Assembly (NCBI GenBank): GCA_029938515.1
Contig: JAOZUU010000134.1
Span: forward strand, 1 to 7,295
Direction of reading: 5' to 3'
Length of the DNA stretch: 7,295 bases
DNA from: Desulfobacterales bacterium
Lineage (GTDB): Bacteria > Desulfobacterota > Desulfobacteria > Desulfobacterales > QNYZ01
Shown in pieces: positions 479 to 7,295 of this stretch. A program made the translations under genes and the position numbers. Within the stretch, counting starts at the first letter, position 1, and each line of letters opens with the position of its first letter. The notes beneath the pieces are model-generated. The model was not told where the DNA came from. It was given only the letters and a program-made list of their open reading frames with translations, and searched no databases.

Positions 479-483
479 ATGTG

Positions 484-1842
484 ATGCATAGATTATTTTC
501 TTCTGCTGGCATGAGCCTTATCGTGGTTTTACTGATCCCCGTCGGCGCCATCGCCGCGGCTTCCTATCAAGTTTCACCCACGGCGGACAACGACTGCAGC
601 GACTTCCAATGCCAGTTGCAGCCGGCGTTAAGTGCATCGGCATCGGACGGGCAGGACAGCGAGGTTATTCTTTCCCAAGGCGGCTACAATGGTAATTTTG
701 AGTACCTACCCGCAATCGGCGGCGATGGCCGGTTGAAAATACAGGGCGGCTGGAACAGTGGTTTCACCGCCCGTACCAGGGACCCCGCCAGTACAATCCT
801 GGATGGAAACAACAATGGCATCGTACTGAAACTCAACGATGTCATCGTCAATGAGGGCGCGACCATAAAGGGCGGCGGCAGTCTCGAGATAGAAGGCATC
901 ACCCTGAGAAACGGCAATGCACCAGCCTATGGCGGAGGTCTTTTCGCTGCAACAGTGCCGCCTGGAAGCATCACGCTCAAAAGGAACATCTTCGAGAACA
1001 ATACCTCTGCGGCGCTTGGCGGTGGCTGTATCGTCTTGTCCGCCGACGCGCTTCCTGGGAGCCGGGGTGGAAATGTCACTCTCGATTCGAACATCATCCG
1101 CAACAACAGGGCCACGGGGTACAGAGATGGCGGGGAAGTTGAACCGGGAGAAGGCGGTGGCTGCATGGTTTTTGCATCTAATACCACCATCATCGCCAAC
1201 AACCTTGTTTACAATAACAGTGCCGGCATCGCGAATTCTTTTAATGGAACTGGCGGCGGTCTTTATATTGATCTGCTAAGTGGCAGCGTTTATATCGTCA
1301 ACAACACTGTTTCCGGAAACCAGGTTAACTCCCTGGATGCAGGACCAAGCGGCAATGGCGGCGGCATCAATGTTTCGACAAACGATGAGTCCGGATGGGG
1401 CGGCGCCAACGTGTTTTTGTACAATAACATCGTATATGGCAACGTCGTGAAAAAGAACAACGCCGTATTCCCCGGCACAGCGTGGGATATTCACAATGCG
1501 GTTGCCGGCAGCGGCCCCCTGAAGGGATCGTTAACCATTGCCTATTCCGATTTTCAACACCTCAGAGGCCGAACCGGATCGGTAGCGCCGGTATTCAGCC
1601 ACAACCTGAATATCGATCCGAAGTTCTCCACTTCCGGGTTCCTTTACCGGCTGACAGAAGCGTCGAAATGCATCGACGGGGGCAGTAATACCGCGCCTCA
1701 CATGCCCAAAATTGATCTCGCCTGGGAAATGCGACCCCAGGACGGGGACCGCAACGGGACGGCTATTACAAACATGGGTGCTTACGAAAAAGTGATCAGA
1801 AAGGGCCTTCCGCTGCCGGCAACCCTTCTGCTTCTCGAATAG
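484..1842 (+). CDS. Secreted right-handed beta-helix protein with choice-of-anchor-Q type C-terminus
   Basis: The 452-residue product begins with a Sec signal peptide: MHRLFSSAG, a hydrophobic stretch to about residue 22, and a likely cleavage near AIA/AAS. The mature N-terminus has C38 and C43 in DFQCQLQPAL, resembling the CTLREAI-like start of this family. GGWNSGF and TILDGN follow. Five rungs then begin with GGG (residues 150, 179, 224, 257 and 292), each followed by a strand and an NN/N-x-V-x-x-N turn, as in Pmp-like parallel beta-helices. The C-terminal part (NIDPKF, SKCIDGGS, RPQDGD, MGAYE) is the signature of choice-of-anchor-Q domain proteins. It ends in GLPLPATLLLLE, a short hydrophobic tail. 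It is probably exported and perhaps surface-attached. Ligand and function are unknown; polysaccharide binding or cleavage is possible, but no catalytic motif was recognised. The gene converges with the RND gene downstream. Confidence 0.85.
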   Translation: MHRLFSSAGMSLIVVLLIPVGAIAAASYQVSPTADNDCSDFQCQLQPALSASASDGQDSEVILSQGGYNGNFEYLPAIGGDGRLKIQGGWNSGFTARTRDPASTILDGNNNGIVLKLNDVIVNEGATIKGGGSLEIEGITLRNGNAPAYGGGLFAATVPPGSITLKRNIFENNTSAALGGGCIVLSADALPGSRGGNVTLDSNIIRNNRATGYRDGGEVEPGEGGGCMVFASNTTIIANNLVYNNSAGIANSFNGTGGGLYIDLLSGSVYIVNNTVSGNQVNSLDAGPSGNGGGINVSTNDESGWGGANVFLYNNIVYGNVVKKNNAVFPGTAWDIHNAVAGSGPLKGSLTIAYSDFQHLRGRTGSVAPVFSHNLNIDPKFSTSGFLYRLTEASKCIDGGSNTAPHMPKIDLAWEMRPQDGDRNGTAITNMGAYEKVIRKGLPLPATLLLLE

Positions 1843-1979: not shown

Positions 1980-4900
1980 CTATCGTTCAATCCGGAATTT
2001 CGTGGTCCTCAGCATCGCCTCCTGAGCATACGAAAAAAGATTCTCAGTTGTCCTGGCACCGCTTTCCACGAGGCCGGCCAGTCCGAATTTAATTTTTAGC
2101 TCGATTCCGCTTGCACAGGCTGGATTTGTCTTGAGCAGTTCCTCCAGTCGTTTTCGGACAACCAGCGCTTTCGCGGTAGAGGTTTGGGGTAAAATCAGAA
2201 CGAATGTGCTGGCATCCAGCCTTCCCAGGGTATCGCTTTTTCGGATCCCGCCGGAAATGGCATCGGAAAGCCCGCACAGCATGGGATCATTCACATCAAA
2301 ACAGGTCAGGGACGAATCACCTTCTTCCTCTAATTTGATGAGGTAGAGGCTAAGATCCGTATGATATCGGCGAGACCGGTGGATTTCCTTGTCCAGACAC
2401 GCCATCAATCCTTTTTGGTTACAAAGACCTGTCAAGTCATCAATGGAGCTGGACTCAAAAAGGCAATGGGAAGCATTTTCGATCCTGTCGCAAAGCACAG
2501 CCATCAGGTTGAAAAAAAACTTGTGAGCAATGGCCGGGTACAGCCATTGCATCCGTTGAATCATTTTAAGGTTTATCTGTAAAAGCTCGGATATTTTTCT
2601 GGCCTGTACCGTCGCTGATCGGGGTACGGCCCGTATAAGGCCCATCTCGCCCACCACATCACCGGCTTTCAGAGTCGTCAGGAGTTTCTGAAACCCTGGT
2701 TTCTGCTGCCCGTCTTGATCAATGGCATGATCCACCACATCCATTTCTCCGGATATCACGGCATACATGGAATCACTCTGTTCCCCCTTCTGGAATAGTA
2801 TTTCGCCGGTCTCTATCTTTTTCAAAGCTCCGGCCATGCAGATGTAGTGAACCTGTGTTCGCGTCATCCCCTGAAAAAGAGGAATACCGTGACGGGGCTC
2901 CACCCCCATTTTCAATCGCACCAGGTCCCAGAGGGTCACCAACTCTACATGCATCATCAATGAGGGGAGCAAAATCATATCCCCCACCAGCGCTGCAAAC
3001 ATGGTGATTACGATCATCATCCCGAATACCGCTGTGGGAGTGAAGCCGGACAGGACCAGGATGGAAAACCCCGCACTGATGGTCAGGGTCGTGAAGATGA
3101 TGGGCCGGCCGACCTGGTGGAGGGTTTTACTGAGAGCCTGCTCTCTGTCCAGGTCTTTGCGAAATTCTTCATTATAGCGTACCAGGTAATGGATCGTATC
3201 ATCGACGGCCAGGCCGATGGCGATACTGGCAATCAGCCCGGTAACCATGGAGAGTTCGATATTGAACCATCCCATGAGCCCGAAAATGATAACGATGGGG
3301 AACAAATTGGTAGCCGCCGCAATAAAACCGACCTTGCTTGACAGGAAAAGGGCAAACATAATGCCGAAAACGAGAACAATCGTGATGGACAGACTCTTTA
3401 TTTGTCCACCGGTAAGCAAGTGGCTGCTGGCGGATATGACGATTCCGAACCCGGTCACATCCCAGCCAAGGGACCCGGGAAACTCTTTTTGGACATGATC
3501 CATGATTTTTTCACGGGTTTCTAAAAATTGCCGTGAACTTGACAAATGGGTCAGGAGCAAAATGTTGGTACTGGAAAGCTCAGGGGTCATGAACCGGGTA
3601 AACATGTCTTCACCCAACATCGTTTTGTAATTATTCATCACCATTCGAAGTTCCCACTCTTCTTCGGGCAGGGCGTAGTATTTGGGATCGAAACTATTCG
3701 TGGCATAACGAACCAGTTTGAGGTAATCGGCAAAAGATACTGTTTTGTCTACACCCGGCAATTTTTCAAGAAATTCCTGGATGCGGGCAATATCGCCAAT
3801 ATGGCCGGGGTCTTCGAAATAATCCTTTTCGTTACCCACCATAACCAGGTTAATGGGGAAACTCCCGGAAAGATCACGATAGATGTCGTGAAAATTCCGA
3901 TATACAGGGACATCCTCTTTGAAATACCCCAGAGGATTGGTCTCGACTTTAATCCGGAAAATGCCCAGGATACAAAAAACCACCAGGCCGCCGAGTACCG
4001 GCAGAACAATCATCTGTCGATTCAAATCGATGTGGATGATCCCGTTAATTACCCGGTCCATCCAGTTGAAGTTTCCGGATTTGTCGGAATGTTTTTTGCG
4101 GGGCAGCGGAATAACACACATCATGGCCGGCAGCAGCGTCAGAATGATGACCAGCAGGCTGAACATACCGAAGCAGGAAAAAACGGCAAATTCACGAATC
4201 GTGGGAATCCGGTTGACAAGTAAAGACCCAAGGCCAATCACGGTCGTAATCACCGCCAGAACAGTTGGAAAGCTGATGCCGCTATAGGTCTGTGCCACGA
4301 CCTTCACCGCTGAGGAGCTGTGCAGACTGCGACGGATGTATTCAGACATGATGTGCAGACAGTAAGCTGTCCCCACGGCGACAAGAAAGACCGGAACGAT
4401 CTGGGTCAGCATGGACAATGGTATCCCGACCCAGGCCATCAGGCCGAATGTCCATACCAGTGTGCAGATAACGCATATCAACGGCATGAAGAGCCCATGA
4501 AGATTTCTATATAAAAGCAAAAGAATAATGGAAATAATCAGAATCGTAACGGGCGGCAGGCGAAAAAAATCTCTTTTCGTGAGCTGAACAAGCGCCTGGG
4601 ACACCAGGGGCATCCCGATCTGGTAAAGTGACAGATCCCGGGTTTGTTCGGCAATCAGGCTATTGACCGCCTGTATCACTGAATCAATATCGGCATCACT
4701 GGATAATACCAGGGTAAGAACCGTGGTTTTATAATCACTGGAAACGATATTTTTCCTGAAAAGATCAATGGGCGCAATAATTTCCGCAAACTTTTCAATG
4801 GGCCATTTTCCCGAGATATCAACGGACTTTTTTATCTCCGGAAGGCTGATTACCCTCCGGACCCCGCTTATCTTGGCAGCATTCTGTGAAAGGGACTCTA

Positions 4901-5180
4901 TCTTGCGAAAGGTGATGGGTTCAAAAATATTTTCCGCCTTGATCACTACGCGGATGATTTCGTCCGAGCCGAAAATCTGCTTGAACTTATGGTGAACGGC
5001 GGTTTCAGGGAGATCTTCAATAATCAGATCATAGATGGATGTCTGAAAGGAAAGCCGTGGCATCTGCAGGGCAAAAAGAAGGGTTACGGCCCCAACGATC
5101 AGGATGACCGCCCAGGGATAACGGATGACCCTTTTAAAAAGCTCCTGAAAAGAAACCTGACGGATCACCTGTTTAAGCAT
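1980..5180 (-). CDS. RND/MMPL-family transporter fused to a cyclic-nucleotide-binding domain and a degenerate GGDEF domain
   Basis: The product is 1066 residues from ATG 5180. Residues 21-745 form a two-fold RND exporter (COG1033/MMPL type): TM1 at 21-40, extracytoplasmic loop 41-207, TM2-TM6 at about 209-358, TM7 at 390-410, second loop 411-594, TM8-TM12 at 596-745. TM10 carries the RND motif GLAVDDTIH (D660, D661), likely the proton relay; the matching TM4 site reads VGTAYCLH without the Asp. Residues 767-880 are a CNB domain with GEILFQKGE and a phosphate-binding cassette GEMGLIRAVPRSATV (E845, R854). Residues 905-1066 are GGDEF-like: DDLTGL at 914 is kept, but GGDEF reads DASTF (989-993) and the first metal Asp is Lys (K949); RKSD (980-983) matches an I-site. 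It is probably a nucleotide-controlled exporter of unknown, perhaps lipidic, substrate. The frame extends to TTG 5240, but the promoter makes ATG 5180 likelier; no good Shine-Dalgarno precedes either. Confidence 0.88.
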   Translation of the reverse strand: MLKQVIRQVSFQELFKRVIRYPWAVILIVGAVTLLFALQMPRLSFQTSIYDLIIEDLPETAVHHKFKQIFGSDEIIRVVIKAENIFEPITFRKIESLSQNAAKISGVRRVISLPEIKKSVDISGKWPIEKFAEIIAPIDLFRKNIVSSDYKTTVLTLVLSSDADIDSVIQAVNSLIAEQTRDLSLYQIGMPLVSQALVQLTKRDFFRLPPVTILIISIILLLLYRNLHGLFMPLICVICTLVWTFGLMAWVGIPLSMLTQIVPVFLVAVGTAYCLHIMSEYIRRSLHSSSAVKVVAQTYSGISFPTVLAVITTVIGLGSLLVNRIPTIREFAVFSCFGMFSLLVIILTLLPAMMCVIPLPRKKHSDKSGNFNWMDRVINGIIHIDLNRQMIVLPVLGGLVVFCILGIFRIKVETNPLGYFKEDVPVYRNFHDIYRDLSGSFPINLVMVGNEKDYFEDPGHIGDIARIQEFLEKLPGVDKTVSFADYLKLVRYATNSFDPKYYALPEEEWELRMVMNNYKTMLGEDMFTRFMTPELSSTNILLLTHLSSSRQFLETREKIMDHVQKEFPGSLGWDVTGFGIVISASSHLLTGGQIKSLSITIVLVFGIMFALFLSSKVGFIAAATNLFPIVIIFGLMGWFNIELSMVTGLIASIAIGLAVDDTIHYLVRYNEEFRKDLDREQALSKTLHQVGRPIIFTTLTISAGFSILVLSGFTPTAVFGMMIVITMFAALVGDMILLPSLMMHVELVTLWDLVRLKMGVEPRHGIPLFQGMTRTQVHYICMAGALKKIETGEILFQKGEQSDSMYAVISGEMDVVDHAIDQDGQQKPGFQKLLTTLKAGDVVGEMGLIRAVPRSATVQARKISELLQINLKMIQRMQWLYPAIAHKFFFNLMAVLCDRIENASHCLFESSSIDDLTGLCNQKGLMACLDKEIHRSRRYHTDLSLYLIKLEEEGDSSLTCFDVNDPMLCGLSDAISGGIRKSDTLGRLDASTFVLILPQTSTAKALVVRKRLEELLKTNPACASGIELKIKFGLAGLVESGARTTENLFSYAQEAMLRTTKFRIER

Positions 5181-5212
5181 GGGTTGCAACCGTTTGATTA
5201 ATCCCAAGGTGA

Positions 5213-5229
5213 CGGTACAAAAAGTACCG
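5213..5229. repeat. Perfect inverted repeat CGGTAC-N5-GTACCG in the RND gene leader
   Basis: Six-base arms flank five A residues (five T on the minus strand). The repeat begins roughly 7 bases after the predicted transcript start of the RND gene and ends 32 bases before ATG 5180. The position suits an operator for a dimeric repressor or a 5'-leader hairpin. A second perfect palindrome, GGTTGCAACC (5182-5191), lies one base before that ATG. Confidence 0.55.
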
Positions 5230-5242
5230 ACTGGAAACAAAT

Positions 5243-5350: not shown

Positions 5351-5405
5351 AAAAAGAGCCCATCTATTAGGAGCTAACGTGAAAAAGGACCCAATCGTCA
5401 GGATC
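5351..5405 (-). terminator. Two tandem weak hairpin/T-run terminators after the GNAT gene
   Basis: On the minus strand, GATCC-N8-GGGTC (5405 to 5388) is followed by CTTTTT, and AGCTC-N9-GGGCT (5375 to 5357) is followed by CTTTTT. Each stem has five pairs including one wobble. The first stem overlaps the GNAT stop codon. Singly they are weak; together they could end the GNAT transcript before the RND promoter. Confidence 0.35.
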
Positions 5406-5856
5406 AAATGCTTCGTTCCAGATTAATGGTTTGGGAGGGACCAAATTGGTTCGCGCTAAAGAAATTTATCAGTTTAGAATCATTCCAGTCGACCAGGGTG
5501 TTTATTTTTTGAACGCCGAGACTTTTCAAGTGGCCAATAAATTCATTAATCAATTGCTCACCGATACGCTTATGCTGGTAATCGGGATCGACGCCGATGG
5601 TGTCCAGGGTCGCTTCTTCCTGAAAAATACCATACTCTCCCATAAAGAGTTCCCCCATTACGAACCCCACCACCGTTCCATTTTCTTCCTCCGCCACAAG
5701 TGACGTGGGTAGATAATCCTTAGATTTAAAAAGCTTGTCGAACTTCAATTCATAGTACTCTGGGCGGGAAGCCTTGAGTACTTTCTCATCTATCCCGACC
5801 ACAGCGTCAAAATCGTCAGCTTTCATGAGCCTGATTTTAATGGTACTCGTGTTCAT
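5404..5856 (-). CDS. GNAT-family N-acetyltransferase
   Basis: This complete 150-residue protein has the usual single-domain GNAT length. It starts at ATG 5856, 4 bases after AAAGGAGG. The order of elements fits the fold: IKIRLMKADDFDAVVGIDE (beta1-alpha1), TSLVAEEENGTVVGFVMGE (beta2-beta3), LDTIGVDPDYQHKRIGEQL (beta4 and the acetyl-CoA pyrophosphate loop, residues 84-102), and INTLVDWNDSKLINFFSANQF (beta5 and motif B, about 118-138). The family transfers an acetyl group from acetyl-CoA to an amine, often a protein N-terminus or lysine in RimI-like members. The acetyl-CoA loop reads Q-H-K-R-I-G, where the usual pattern is Q/R-x-x-G-x-G/A; the first Gly is Arg (R97). Cofactor binding may still occur through backbone contacts. 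The gene lies 110 bases downstream of the Fe-S oxidoreductase on the same strand and may be co-transcribed. The substrate is unknown. Confidence 0.85.
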   Translation of the reverse strand: MNTSTIKIRLMKADDFDAVVGIDEKVLKASRPEYYELKFDKLFKSKDYLPTSLVAEEENGTVVGFVMGELFMGEYGIFQEEATLDTIGVDPDYQHKRIGEQLINEFIGHLKSLGVQKINTLVDWNDSKLINFFSANQFGPSQTINLERSI

Positions 5857-5966: not shown

Positions 5967-7295
5967 TTACGCCATATTCATCGCCACTAACTCGGCGATA
6001 TCTTGTGTCTTGATTTCCTCTTCTTTTTCCAGTTCTTTCATGCCGTCTTCGATCATGGTCAAACAGAACGGGCAACCCACGGCCACATTCGCCACCTGTT
6101 TTCCGACGATTTCTTCGGCTCGTTCCAAATTGATTCGTTTGCCGATGGTCTCCTCCATCCACATTCCGCCCCCGCCTGCGCCACAACAAAAACTTTCGGA
6201 GCCATACCGGTCGAGCTCTTTGAGTCCCCAGTTTGATATGGACTTCAAAATCGATCGGGGTTGATCATACACCGAATTATATCGACCCAGATAGCAGGGA
6301 TCGTGGTAGGTCAAAGATCCTTCCAATGTTCTTTTTAAGGCGATTTTCCCCTCTTTTACGATCTGATCGATGAACTCGGTATGATGGACCACTTGGTAAT
6401 TGCCGCCCAGTTGCGGGTATTCATGCTTCAGCGTATTGAGACAATGGGGACACGCCGTGATGATTTTTTTAACCTTGTAATTGTTCAAGGTTTCGATGTT
6501 TTCCTGCGCCATCATCTGGTACAGCATTTCATTGCCGACGCGCCGGGCAAAGTCACCGGTGCATTTCTCTTCCACACCCAGGATAGCGAAGCTGATACCG
6601 GCTCTTTGCAGGATTTTGACCAGGCTGGTGGATACTTTTTTGGATCGGTCATCGAATGAACCGGCACAGCCAACCCAGAGTAAATAGTCGACATCGGAAT
6701 CATCCGCCATCATTTTAACGTCCAGTCCGTCCGCCCAATCGGCGCGTTTGTCATACCCGATGCCCCAGGGATTGCCGTTGCGTTCGAGTCCTTTAAGGGC
6801 CGGGTTCAACTCTTTGGGGTAGGCTTCCGCCATCAACGTCTGCCCCTGTCTCATGGCGATGATGCGGGGAACATGTTCGATAGTCACCGGGCAGACTTCT
6901 TCACAGGCTCGGCAGGTCGTACAGGCCCAAAGCGTGTCTTCGGCGATCACGTCACCAACAAGCTGCTTTTTGCTGTTGAGCGCAGCTATCTGTTCGGATA
7001 TCTGGGCTTTATTTTTATCAATTTGCCTGGAGTCGCCATCTGGCTTGATGGTGGCGGACAACTTCGCTCTTTTGATTATGTTGTCCGCATTATCTAATAA
7101 TTCAGATTTCAATTTATCATTGAAATCATGCAGATTTAACGGTTTGTCAGTGATGTAAGTGGGGCAAACTTCTTTACAGCGACCACACTCGGTACAGGTG
7201 TAAAGATCCAGTCCCTGTTTCCAATTGAGCTGGTGGATGTGATTGATTCCCAGCGATTCGTCTTCCCAGGCCGCTTCATCTTCCAAATCCAAAAG
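5967..7295 (-). CDS. HdrD/EMO-like iron-sulfur oxidoreductase with two 4Fe-4S motifs and two CCG domains (N-terminus outside window)
   Basis: The frame is open to the window edge, so only the C-terminal 442 residues are seen. The TTG at 7292 is probably internal, since a Leu codon precedes it in frame. Counting from that TTG, two ferredoxin motifs (CTECGRCKEVCP at 33-44, CTTCRACEEVCP at 124-135) would each bind a [4Fe-4S] cluster. CCG domain 1 has C209, C244 and CPHC 281-284 but reads KCTGD instead of CCG. CCG domain 2 (DPCYLGRYN, C333; FCCGAGGG, C369-C370; CPFC, 407-410) is intact and could hold a noncubane cluster of the HdrB type. These motifs match proteins annotated as heterodisulfide-reductase-related or EtfAB:quinone oxidoreductases, which usually carry an N-terminal heme b membrane domain. 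A role in electron transfer from acyl-CoA oxidation is inferred; the membrane part would lie beyond 7295. Confidence 0.85.
   Translation of the reverse strand, partial: LLDLEDEAAWEDESLGINHIHQLNWKQGLDLYTCTECGRCKEVCPTYITDKPLNLHDFNDKLKSELLDNADNIIKRAKLSATIKPDGDSRQIDKNKAQISEQIAALNSKKQLVGDVIAEDTLWACTTCRACEEVCPVTIEHVPRIIAMRQGQTLMAEAYPKELNPALKGLERNGNPWGIGYDKRADWADGLDVKMMADDSDVDYLLWVGCAGSFDDRSKKVSTSLVKILQRAGISFAILGVEEKCTGDFARRVGNEMLYQMMAQENIETLNNYKVKKIITACPHCLNTLKHEYPQLGGNYQVVHHTEFIDQIVKEGKIALKRTLEGSLTYHDPCYLGRYNSVYDQPRSILKSISNWGLKELDRYGSESFCCGAGGGGMWMEETIGKRINLERAEEIVGKQVANVAVGCPFCLTMIEDGMKELEKEEEIKTQDIAELVAMNMA

What the first reader, a model, noticed from the sequence alone, without database searches (positions are those of the whole stretch)
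1980..5180. Three-part fusion: RND exporter, cyclic-nucleotide-binding domain, GGDEF-like domain
One continuous frame joins a full 12-TM RND pump to two cytosolic second-messenger modules. RND pumps are normally controlled by transcription; this layout suggests direct control of transport by cAMP/cGMP and possibly c-di-GMP. From memory, RND-CNB fusions occur in Desulfobacterota; I do not recall the added GGDEF-like domain as a described architecture and cannot check it here.
Basis: partly seen in the sequence, partly recalled or inferred. Interest (0 to 1): 0.75.

Follow-up and report, generated by a model that had tools for sequence, protein, structure and literature searches.

The report
Hydrogenase-linked RND protein with messenger-sensing tail
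This window encodes one continuous membrane protein of the RND pump family fused to a cyclic-nucleotide-binding domain and a GGDEF domain that has lost its enzyme motif; relatives of the gene repeatedly sit inside [NiFe]-hydrogenase gene clusters, so the protein likely ties membrane transport or sensing to small signalling molecules in relatives of sulfate-reducing, hydrogen-metabolising bacteria.

Summary
Confirmed: window 1980-5240 (-) is one frame of 1086 aa (ATG at 5180 likely) joining RND/MMPL, cNMP-binding and GGDEF domains; 119 of 120 listed homologues carry all three. The GGDEF domain is no diguanylate cyclase: 0 of 120 comparable sequences keep GG[DE]EF, while the c-di-GMP I-site RxxD is kept in 117 of 120, against 5 of 14 other motif-degenerate GGDEF domains and 29 of 29 intact ones from relatives. 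The window's own copy is not beside its hydrogenase. Likely reading: an RND core gated by a messenger-binding tail, accessory to periplasmic hydrogenase. Ligands, substrate and signal direction are untested; my searches of an open-access library found no description.

The parts
1980..5240 (-). RND-CNB-degenerate GGDEF fusion ORF, 1086 aa from TTG 5240; ATG at 5180 (1066 aa) likely start
2904..5153 (-). RND/MMPL core, residues 30-779, 12 predicted TM helices, two periplasmic domains
   Evidence: Pfam MMPL/Sterol-sensing/ACR_tran; model and Foldseek
4359..4373 (-). TM4 motif G-T-A-Y-C (residues 290-294): acidic pair of outgroup RND-CNB proteins replaced by Y-C
   Evidence: class A: Y 52 and C 53 of 53; class C: Y 27 and C 26 of 27; three RND-CNB outgroups E-D
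3198..3203 (-). TM10 D680-D681
   Evidence: invariant in A1; kept in all rows of all classes except one class C row with N at 681
2553..2822 (-). cyclic-nucleotide-binding domain, residues 807-896
   Evidence: PF00027 56.9 bits; tail model matches CRP/GlxR folds
2610..2651 (-). phosphate-binding cassette GEMGLIRAVPRSAT, residues 864-877, with E865 and R874
   Evidence: E865+R874 in 120 of 121 (A1) and 43 of 50 (A2)
2007..2447 (-). degenerate GGDEF domain, residues 932-1078
   Evidence: PF00990 52.4 bits; 3ign match
2232..2243 (-). I-site motif RxxD (R1000-D1003)
   Evidence: 117 of 120 (A1), 45 of 50 (A2)
2202..2216 (-). scrambled catalytic motif DASTF (residues 1009-1013) in place of GG[DE]EF
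   Evidence: 0 of 120 (A1) and 0 of 50 (A2) keep GG[DE]EF
2148..2150 (-). R1031, position of the third I-site arginine (PleD R390, numbering recalled)
   Evidence: R in 120 of 121 (A1) and 45 of 50 (A2); at the same fixed offset in 16 of 29 intact GGDEF sites
5404..5856 (-). upstream neighbour, GNAT-family acetyltransferase, 150 aa
   Evidence: PF00583; not found in the other RND loci searched
5967..7295 (-). upstream neighbour, Fe-S/CCG protein, runs off the window
   Evidence: PF02754, Fer4 families

Best explanation
The gene encodes one continuous RND/MMPL-family membrane protein whose predicted cytosolic tail, a cyclic-nucleotide-binding domain plus a GGDEF domain without its catalytic motif, likely works as a ligand-operated switch on the RND core, and the family is likely an accessory of the periplasmic [NiFe] hydrogenase. 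Shown: the architecture, its conservation, the loss of the catalytic motif with retention of the I-site residues, the swap of the tail for a histidine kinase in relatives, and the placement of many relatives in hydrogenase gene clusters. Inferred: a cyclic mononucleotide (cAMP or cGMP) in the CNB pocket and c-di-GMP at the I-site would change the tail's shape and thereby open or block the RND conformational cycle. That would let the cell match the RND activity, perhaps export of a lipid or hydrophobic molecule or readout of a periplasmic signal, to its hydrogen metabolism. What the core moves or senses is unknown.
For: Single frame and three Pfam domains above cut-off; 119 of 120 listed homologues keep the architecture. 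CNB pocket pair E865/R874 in 120 of 121. GG[DE]EF in 0 of 120 and 0 of 50, RxxD in 117 of 120 and 45 of 50, R1031 in 120 of 121; control: motif-degenerate GGDEF domains from five relatives keep RxxD in 5 of 14. Tail model (pLDDT 84.2) matches cAMP-bound GlxR, CRP and the c-di-GMP-bound 3ign GGDEF. PopA is a precedent for RxxD with a degenerate A-site (passages of PMC12564702). Class III cyclase genes flank some members: CHASE2-cyclase 1.0-1.2 kb downstream of L029, L035, L037 (domains checked for L035), FHA-cyclase just upstream of L072. The window's genome has 8 Guanylate_cyc matches and three intact GG[DE]EF proteins. Hydrogenase context: 27 of 41 RND-CNB-GGDEF loci with at least 4 kb of flank; order large subunit-RND-protease on one strand in ten; 25 of 51 RND-bearing genomes within 12 kb of HynB; 0 of 4 long outgroup RND-CNB loci.
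Against: No ligand binding was or could be tested. RxxD is probably inherited: 29 of 29 intact GGDEF sites examined in relatives have it, so its retention may be partly structural, and the degenerate control is small (14, of which two look like orthologues and three read GGDDF). Relatives carry a kinase tail on the same core, which suggests that the core can signal outward instead of being gated. The pocket pair E/R is not both present in 7 of 50 of the more diverse tails. The TM4 acidic residues of the outgroup are gone, so the core may not be an ordinary proton-driven pump. The window's own copy lies beside a GNAT and an Fe-S/CCG gene, not the hydrogenase; 14 of 41 RND-CNB-GGDEF loci with enough flank show no hydrogenase marker, and 9 of 51 RND-bearing genomes have no HynB match. 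Cyclase genes also flank kinase-tailed loci that have no CNB (L053, L081).
Confidence: 0.5

Rival explanations
1. The RND core is a sensor derived from a pump (a transceptor) and the tail is the output: in relatives a histidine kinase, here a CNB-pseudoGGDEF module that would report to a partner protein.
For: Tail swap to a complete kinase, H 27 of 27, N and G1 boxes 26 of 26 readable, at matching sites in some cases: hypF-hypD-hypE-apbE upstream of both L015/L017/L018/L080 and L057, and the same three upstream genes, named by eye, before both L072 and L085 (maps; cyclase domain checked for L072 only). TM4 acids lost throughout the clade. A sensory-type hydrogenase small-subunit marker is found near 16 of 27 kinase loci (one repeats another's region).
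Against: The CNB-GGDEF tail has no known output chemistry and a conserved ligand pocket; TM10 acids are kept; the invariant columns lie mostly in the RND core, as expected for a working transporter too.
Confidence: 0.3
2. The protein is a hydrogenase assembly or localisation factor: the RND core moves a lipid or hydrophobic molecule needed for export, anchoring or envelope stability of HynAB, and the tail is a minor regulator.
For: Position between the large-subunit and protease genes in ten RND-CNB-GGDEF and two RND-CNB loci; fold like lipid-moving MmpL3/HpnN/NPC1.
Against: The HynA of L048 and of the window's genome end, by eye, without a hydrophobic anchor; 166 of the 208 HynB-bearing genomes of the order sample lack the RND, so it is not generally needed for hydrogenase.
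Confidence: 0.12
3. Ordinary MMPL-type exporter in which the tail is a decaying accessory without function.
For: No column of the GGDEF part is invariant in A1, the last invariant one being N911; two RND-CNB members nested inside the clade lack GGDEF (L038, L040).
Against: CNB pocket and I-site positions are among the best conserved tail columns across 121 sequences; 119 of 120 listed homologues keep all three domains.
Confidence: 0.08

Closest known systems
MmpL3/MmpL4/MmpL5, HpnN and NPC1-type RND proteins
   Same: 12-TM RND fold with two periplasmic domains; Foldseek E 1.3e-25 to MmpL4; Pfam MMPL
   Different: No cNMP or GGDEF tail in those (recalled); TM4 acid replaced by Y-C here; NCBIfam HAE3 cut-off not reached
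RND-CNB proteins of the same order (L105-L107, L120-L123)
   Same: RND core followed by a CNB domain; 28-30% identity
   Different: No GGDEF; TM4 E-D present in the three checked; no hydrogenase markers in the 4 long loci
RND-histidine kinase relatives (L048, L057, L065, L067 and others)
   Same: Same RND core, 47-59% identical in the best segment, overlapping kinds of genomic site
   Different: HisKA-HATPase tail in place of CNB-GGDEF
PopA (degenerate GGDEF c-di-GMP receptor)
   Same: A-site lost, RxxD kept (PMC12564702 passages)
   Different: PopA is a response regulator; no transporter
CbrA-type transporter-kinase fusions (recalled, no call)
   Same: Transporter core joined to a signalling tail
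   Different: SLC5/PutP core, not RND

Membership tests
RND/MMPL superfamily | MMPL domain above Pfam cut-off, two stretches | tested here: met
   125.6 bits versus 20.5, two stretches
RND/MMPL superfamily | 12 TM helices, two large periplasmic domains, RND fold | tested here: met
   model, Foldseek to MmpL/HpnN/NPC1
RND/MMPL superfamily, MmpL3-like proton relay | acidic residues in both TM4 and TM10 (recalled for MmpL3) | tested here: not met
   TM10 D680-D681 present; TM4 is Y293-C294
HAE3 exporters, TIGR00921 | score above NCBIfam cut-off 351.9 | tested here: not met
   226.6 bits
Cyclic-nucleotide-binding domain proteins | Pfam cNMP_binding and cassette Glu/Arg | tested here: met
   56.9 bits versus 27.5; E865+R874 in 120 of 121
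Cyclic-nucleotide-binding domain proteins | binds cAMP or cGMP | not testable with these tools
   needs protein
Diguanylate cyclases | GG[DE]EF motif | tested here: not met
   DASTF here; 0 of 120 and 0 of 50
Degenerate-GGDEF c-di-GMP receptors (PopA-like) | A-site lost with I-site RxxD kept | tested here: met
   117 of 120; controls 5 of 14 degenerate and 29 of 29 intact
Degenerate-GGDEF c-di-GMP receptors (PopA-like) | binds c-di-GMP | not testable with these tools
   needs protein
[NiFe]-hydrogenase accessory gene | recurrent placement of the family in hydrogenase clusters | tested here: met
   27 of 41 and 15 of 21 loci, 25 of 51 genomes
[NiFe]-hydrogenase accessory gene | this copy adjacent to hydrogenase genes | tested here: not met
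   RND on contig C28; hynA-hynB-hupD-hypF-hypD-hypE-apbE on C356, which ends inside apbE

The most novel reading that the evidence does not exclude
A family of RND proteins that has been turned from pumps into hydrogenase-linked transceptors with exchangeable tails: in one form the core drives a histidine kinase beside an H2-sensing hydrogenase, in the other it is read or gated through a cAMP/c-di-GMP double switch, giving sulfate-reducer relatives a membrane device that joins periplasmic hydrogen metabolism to second-messenger signalling.
Probability: 0.3. Interest if true: 0.88.

Novelty: new variant of a known kind. Interest (0 to 1): 0.68.

Why it matters
RND proteins are usually thought of as pumps controlled by transcription. 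Here one RND core is found with two kinds of signalling tail, and the genes recur inside [NiFe]-hydrogenase clusters, in ten loci between the large subunit and its maturation protease. If the tail binds its predicted ligands, this would be a direct second-messenger control point, possibly a dual cNMP/c-di-GMP one, on an RND protein, and a lead to how these bacteria couple envelope or signalling functions to hydrogen turnover. The tail swap makes the question of direction, gating or sensing, testable with chimeras.

Tried and rejected
Assembly error or frameshift: rejected. Active diguanylate cyclase: rejected. RxxD as a stand-alone argument: weakened, since 29 of 29 intact GG[DE]EF sites in 30 best-scoring loci of six relatives also have RxxD (biased to high scores; one locus gave no site). 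I therefore added a motif-degenerate control, 5 of 14: 20 regions were fetched; 18 rows besides the window aligned, from 17 regions; three regions gave no row. Dropped before the count were three rows with an intact motif (L169, L186, L187) and one empty second row of L168. The 14 include three GGDDF rows, two rows that look like orthologues (L172, L173, both with RxxD), and come from five genomes. A first count of kinase boxes with loose patterns used wrong patterns; the alignment replaces it. A first neighbour clustering was swamped by antisense ORFs; the marker-based count replaces it. The window's GNAT and Fe-S/CCG genes as a conserved context: not supported; among the loci held, GNAT matched only the window's own locus, CCG that and weakly L036. 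Literature on RND with CNB, GGDEF or kinase, or RND in hydrogenase operons: the listings gave nothing on point (open-access library; most subscription papers are not in it). PMC13101534 (passages) mentions an MMPL protein in a benzene-related gene cluster and seems unrelated. Bias: loci L011-L089 were found with the patterns IGLAVDDT and VGTAYCLH, so TM4/TM10 conservation in them is partly selected; A1 was not chosen by those patterns and shows C294 in at least 90% and D680/D681 in all rows. Near-copies: several L090-L101 loci repeat genomes of L011-L089; those have under 4 kb of flank and are not in the 41 and 21.
Full report
What is in the window. The minus strand from 5240 to 1980 is one frame of 1086 aa; the ATG at 5180 gives 1066 aa, the length of the two 89%-identical homologues. 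Pfam finds MMPL, cNMP_binding (807-896) and GGDEF (932-1078), all above curated cut-offs. The structure model has 12 membrane helices (my reading of the helix list), two large domains between them and a tail after TM12; the RND part matches MmpL4/5, NPC1-type, MmpL3 and HpnN structures. Short loops on the N-terminal and tail side carry more K+R than those on the other side, so the tail is predicted cytosolic. A separate tail model (pLDDT 84.2, pTM 0.67, 50 sequences) matches cAMP-receptor folds such as GlxR and CRP and GGDEF folds such as WspR and 3ign.

Conservation. A protein search scored 7996 candidates, 1048 passed and the best 120 were listed; 119 of these 120 list all three domain families (by eye). 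In the alignment of the window protein with these 120 (A1) the CNB cassette residues E865 and R874 are both present in 120 of 121; of the 120 rows without a gap in the motif none has GG[DE]EF and 117 have RxxD. R1031, at the place of the third I-site arginine of PleD (recalled), is R in 120 of 121. In a second set of 50 tails, the window's and 49 of the 55 usable ones (six near-copies left out), the values are 43 of 50, 0 of 50, 45 of 50 and 45 of 50. So the catalytic motif is gone, the nucleotide cassette is kept in nearly all close relatives, and the I-site is kept.

Controls for the I-site. In six relatives, 29 of 29 intact GG[DE]EF sites from the 30 best-scoring loci have RxxD, and 16 of 29 have R at the third position by fixed offset; the motif was thus probably inherited from an active cyclase. 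Among 14 motif-degenerate GGDEF domains from five of the same genomes 5 keep RxxD (5 of 11 without the three GGDDF rows). In the window's own genome 1 of 3 other intact GGDEF proteins has RxxD. Retention in the RND tails is above that of other degenerate domains, but the sample is small and the motif may also be structural. PopA is a published precedent for a GGDEF protein with a dead A-site and a c-di-GMP-binding RxxD (passages of PMC12564702).

Tail swap. A genome scan gave 79 loci (the best 80 of 433 stretches that encode a relative) and the genome search more. Of 95 loci with a strong RND core, the window's included, 59 have CNB-GGDEF (class A), 27 a histidine kinase tail (class C), 3 CNB alone (class B) and 6 are cut or split. 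In the four class C proteins tested Pfam gives HATPase_c above cut-off in four and HisKA above cut-off in three, just below in L065; the phospho-acceptor His is present in 27 of 27 and the N and G1 boxes in 26 of 26 readable tails. A tree of the RND cores needs at least 4 changes for class A and 2 for class C on well-supported branches (quick method, long branches flagged by the tool), so the tail changed more than once. In some cases the two forms occupy matching sites: hypF-hypD-hypE-apbE precedes the RND in class A loci L015, L017, L018, L080 and in class C locus L057; and the same upstream genes, by eye, precede L072 (A) and L085 (C) (maps).

Hydrogenase link. Marker genes for [NiFe]-hydrogenase subunits, maturation protease and HypF/D/E, taken from L048 and L017 (Pfam check of the L048 genes; HypF, HypD and HypE named by eye), were sought in the loci held then. 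Among loci with at least 4 kb of total flank at least one marker occurs in 27 of 41 class A, 2 of 2 class B, 15 of 21 class C and 4 of 4 unclassified; a few rest on one gene only. In ten class A loci (L013, L014, L025, L026, L030, L032, L034, L036, L039, L044) and two class B loci (L038, L040) the RND gene lies between the hydrogenase large-subunit gene and the protease gene on one strand. Near 16 of 27 class C loci there is a second small subunit, without Tat motif by eye in the two read, and in many a large subunit and PAS histidine kinase follow (Pfam for L048), the arrangement of H2-sensing hydrogenases (recalled). Control: four outgroup RND-CNB loci of 11.6 to 19 kb, and the other distant RND loci with short flanks, show none of these markers. 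Order-wide sample: of 389 genomes, 51 have the RND core at E<=1e-150 and 208 a HynB-like large subunit at E<=1e-60; 42 of the 51 have both against 166 of the other 338 (Fisher p 7.6e-6, not corrected for kinship), and in 25 of 51 they lie within 12 kb on one contig, class A and C together.

The window's own copy. Its genome (72% complete, 560 contigs) has one RND of this family, on the window contig beside a GNAT and an Fe-S/CCG gene. Its hydrogenase cluster hynA-hynB-hupD-hypF-hypD-hypE-apbE is on another contig and stops at the contig end inside apbE. In its nearest relative in the tree (L011/L090) the RND follows hypE-apbE. Whether the window's copy moved or a second copy is missing from the assembly cannot be told.

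TM4. In class A and C the TM4 motif is G-T-A-Y-C with few exceptions; three RND-CNB outgroups have G-S-T-E-D at the same place; TM10 keeps D-D in all rows but one. Half of the usual acidic relay is thus missing in the hydrogenase-linked clade. This may mean a changed ion coupling or a sensor function; it argues against filing the protein as a standard HAE3 exporter, whose NCBIfam cut-off it also fails.

Messenger supply. CHASE2-nucleotidyl cyclase genes lie 1.0 to 1.2 kb downstream of L029, L035 and L037 and an FHA-cyclase just upstream of L072; Pfam was checked for L035 and L072. Such genes also flank class C loci L053 and L081, which have no CNB, so this is only mild support. The window's genome has eight Guanylate_cyc matches and three intact GGDEF proteins.

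Mechanism. Most likely the tail is an input: ligand in the CNB pocket and at the I-site would set the state of the RND core, which would act in step with hydrogenase, for a lipid-like substrate or a periplasmic signal. The kinase relatives make the opposite direction, core to tail, a serious rival. Every step from ligand to function is inferred.

Literature. The searches listed no paper that, by title, abstract start or passages seen, describes RND-CNB-GGDEF or RND-kinase proteins or RND genes in hydrogenase operons; the library holds open-access papers only. Passages of the Desulfobacterium autotrophicum genome paper (PMC2702500) describe hynAB; 'RND' does not occur in its main text; it suggests that electrons from the [NiFe] hydrogenase go to an as yet unknown membrane carrier.

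Noticed in passing
L048, L057, L065, L067, L076 and 22 further loci (class C): RND core fused to a histidine kinase tail, in 16 of 27 near a sensory-type [NiFe] hydrogenase small-subunit gene.
   Followed up: yes
L029, L035, L037 (downstream), L072, L053, L081 (upstream): CHASE2- or FHA-linked class III nucleotidyl cyclase genes beside the RND gene in Desulfosarcina-type loci.
   Followed up: partly
L049:11932-13440, L067:9357-10883, L076:5384-6892: Sensory-type hydrogenase large subunits end only a few residues after the last DPCxxCxxH motif, shorter than HynB; the L048 one is longer.
   Followed up: no
L077, L081, L082, L083, L088: RND reading frames split into two ORFs; real inactivation or sequencing errors not distinguished.
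   Followed up: no
window 481-1842 (+): 453-aa ORF with N-terminal signal-like stretch and Asn/Gly-rich repeats by eye (beta-helix-like), no Pfam match at E 0.1 or NCBIfam match at E 0.01.
   Followed up: no
L120-L123: Distant RND-CNB proteins without GGDEF, with no hydrogenase markers nearby.
   Followed up: partly
L065, L064, L063: Kinase-tailed RND in strain NaphS2 and relatives lies by another kinase and a receiver protein and, in L064 and L065, an acyl-CoA-ligase-like gene by eye, not hydrogenase.
   Followed up: no
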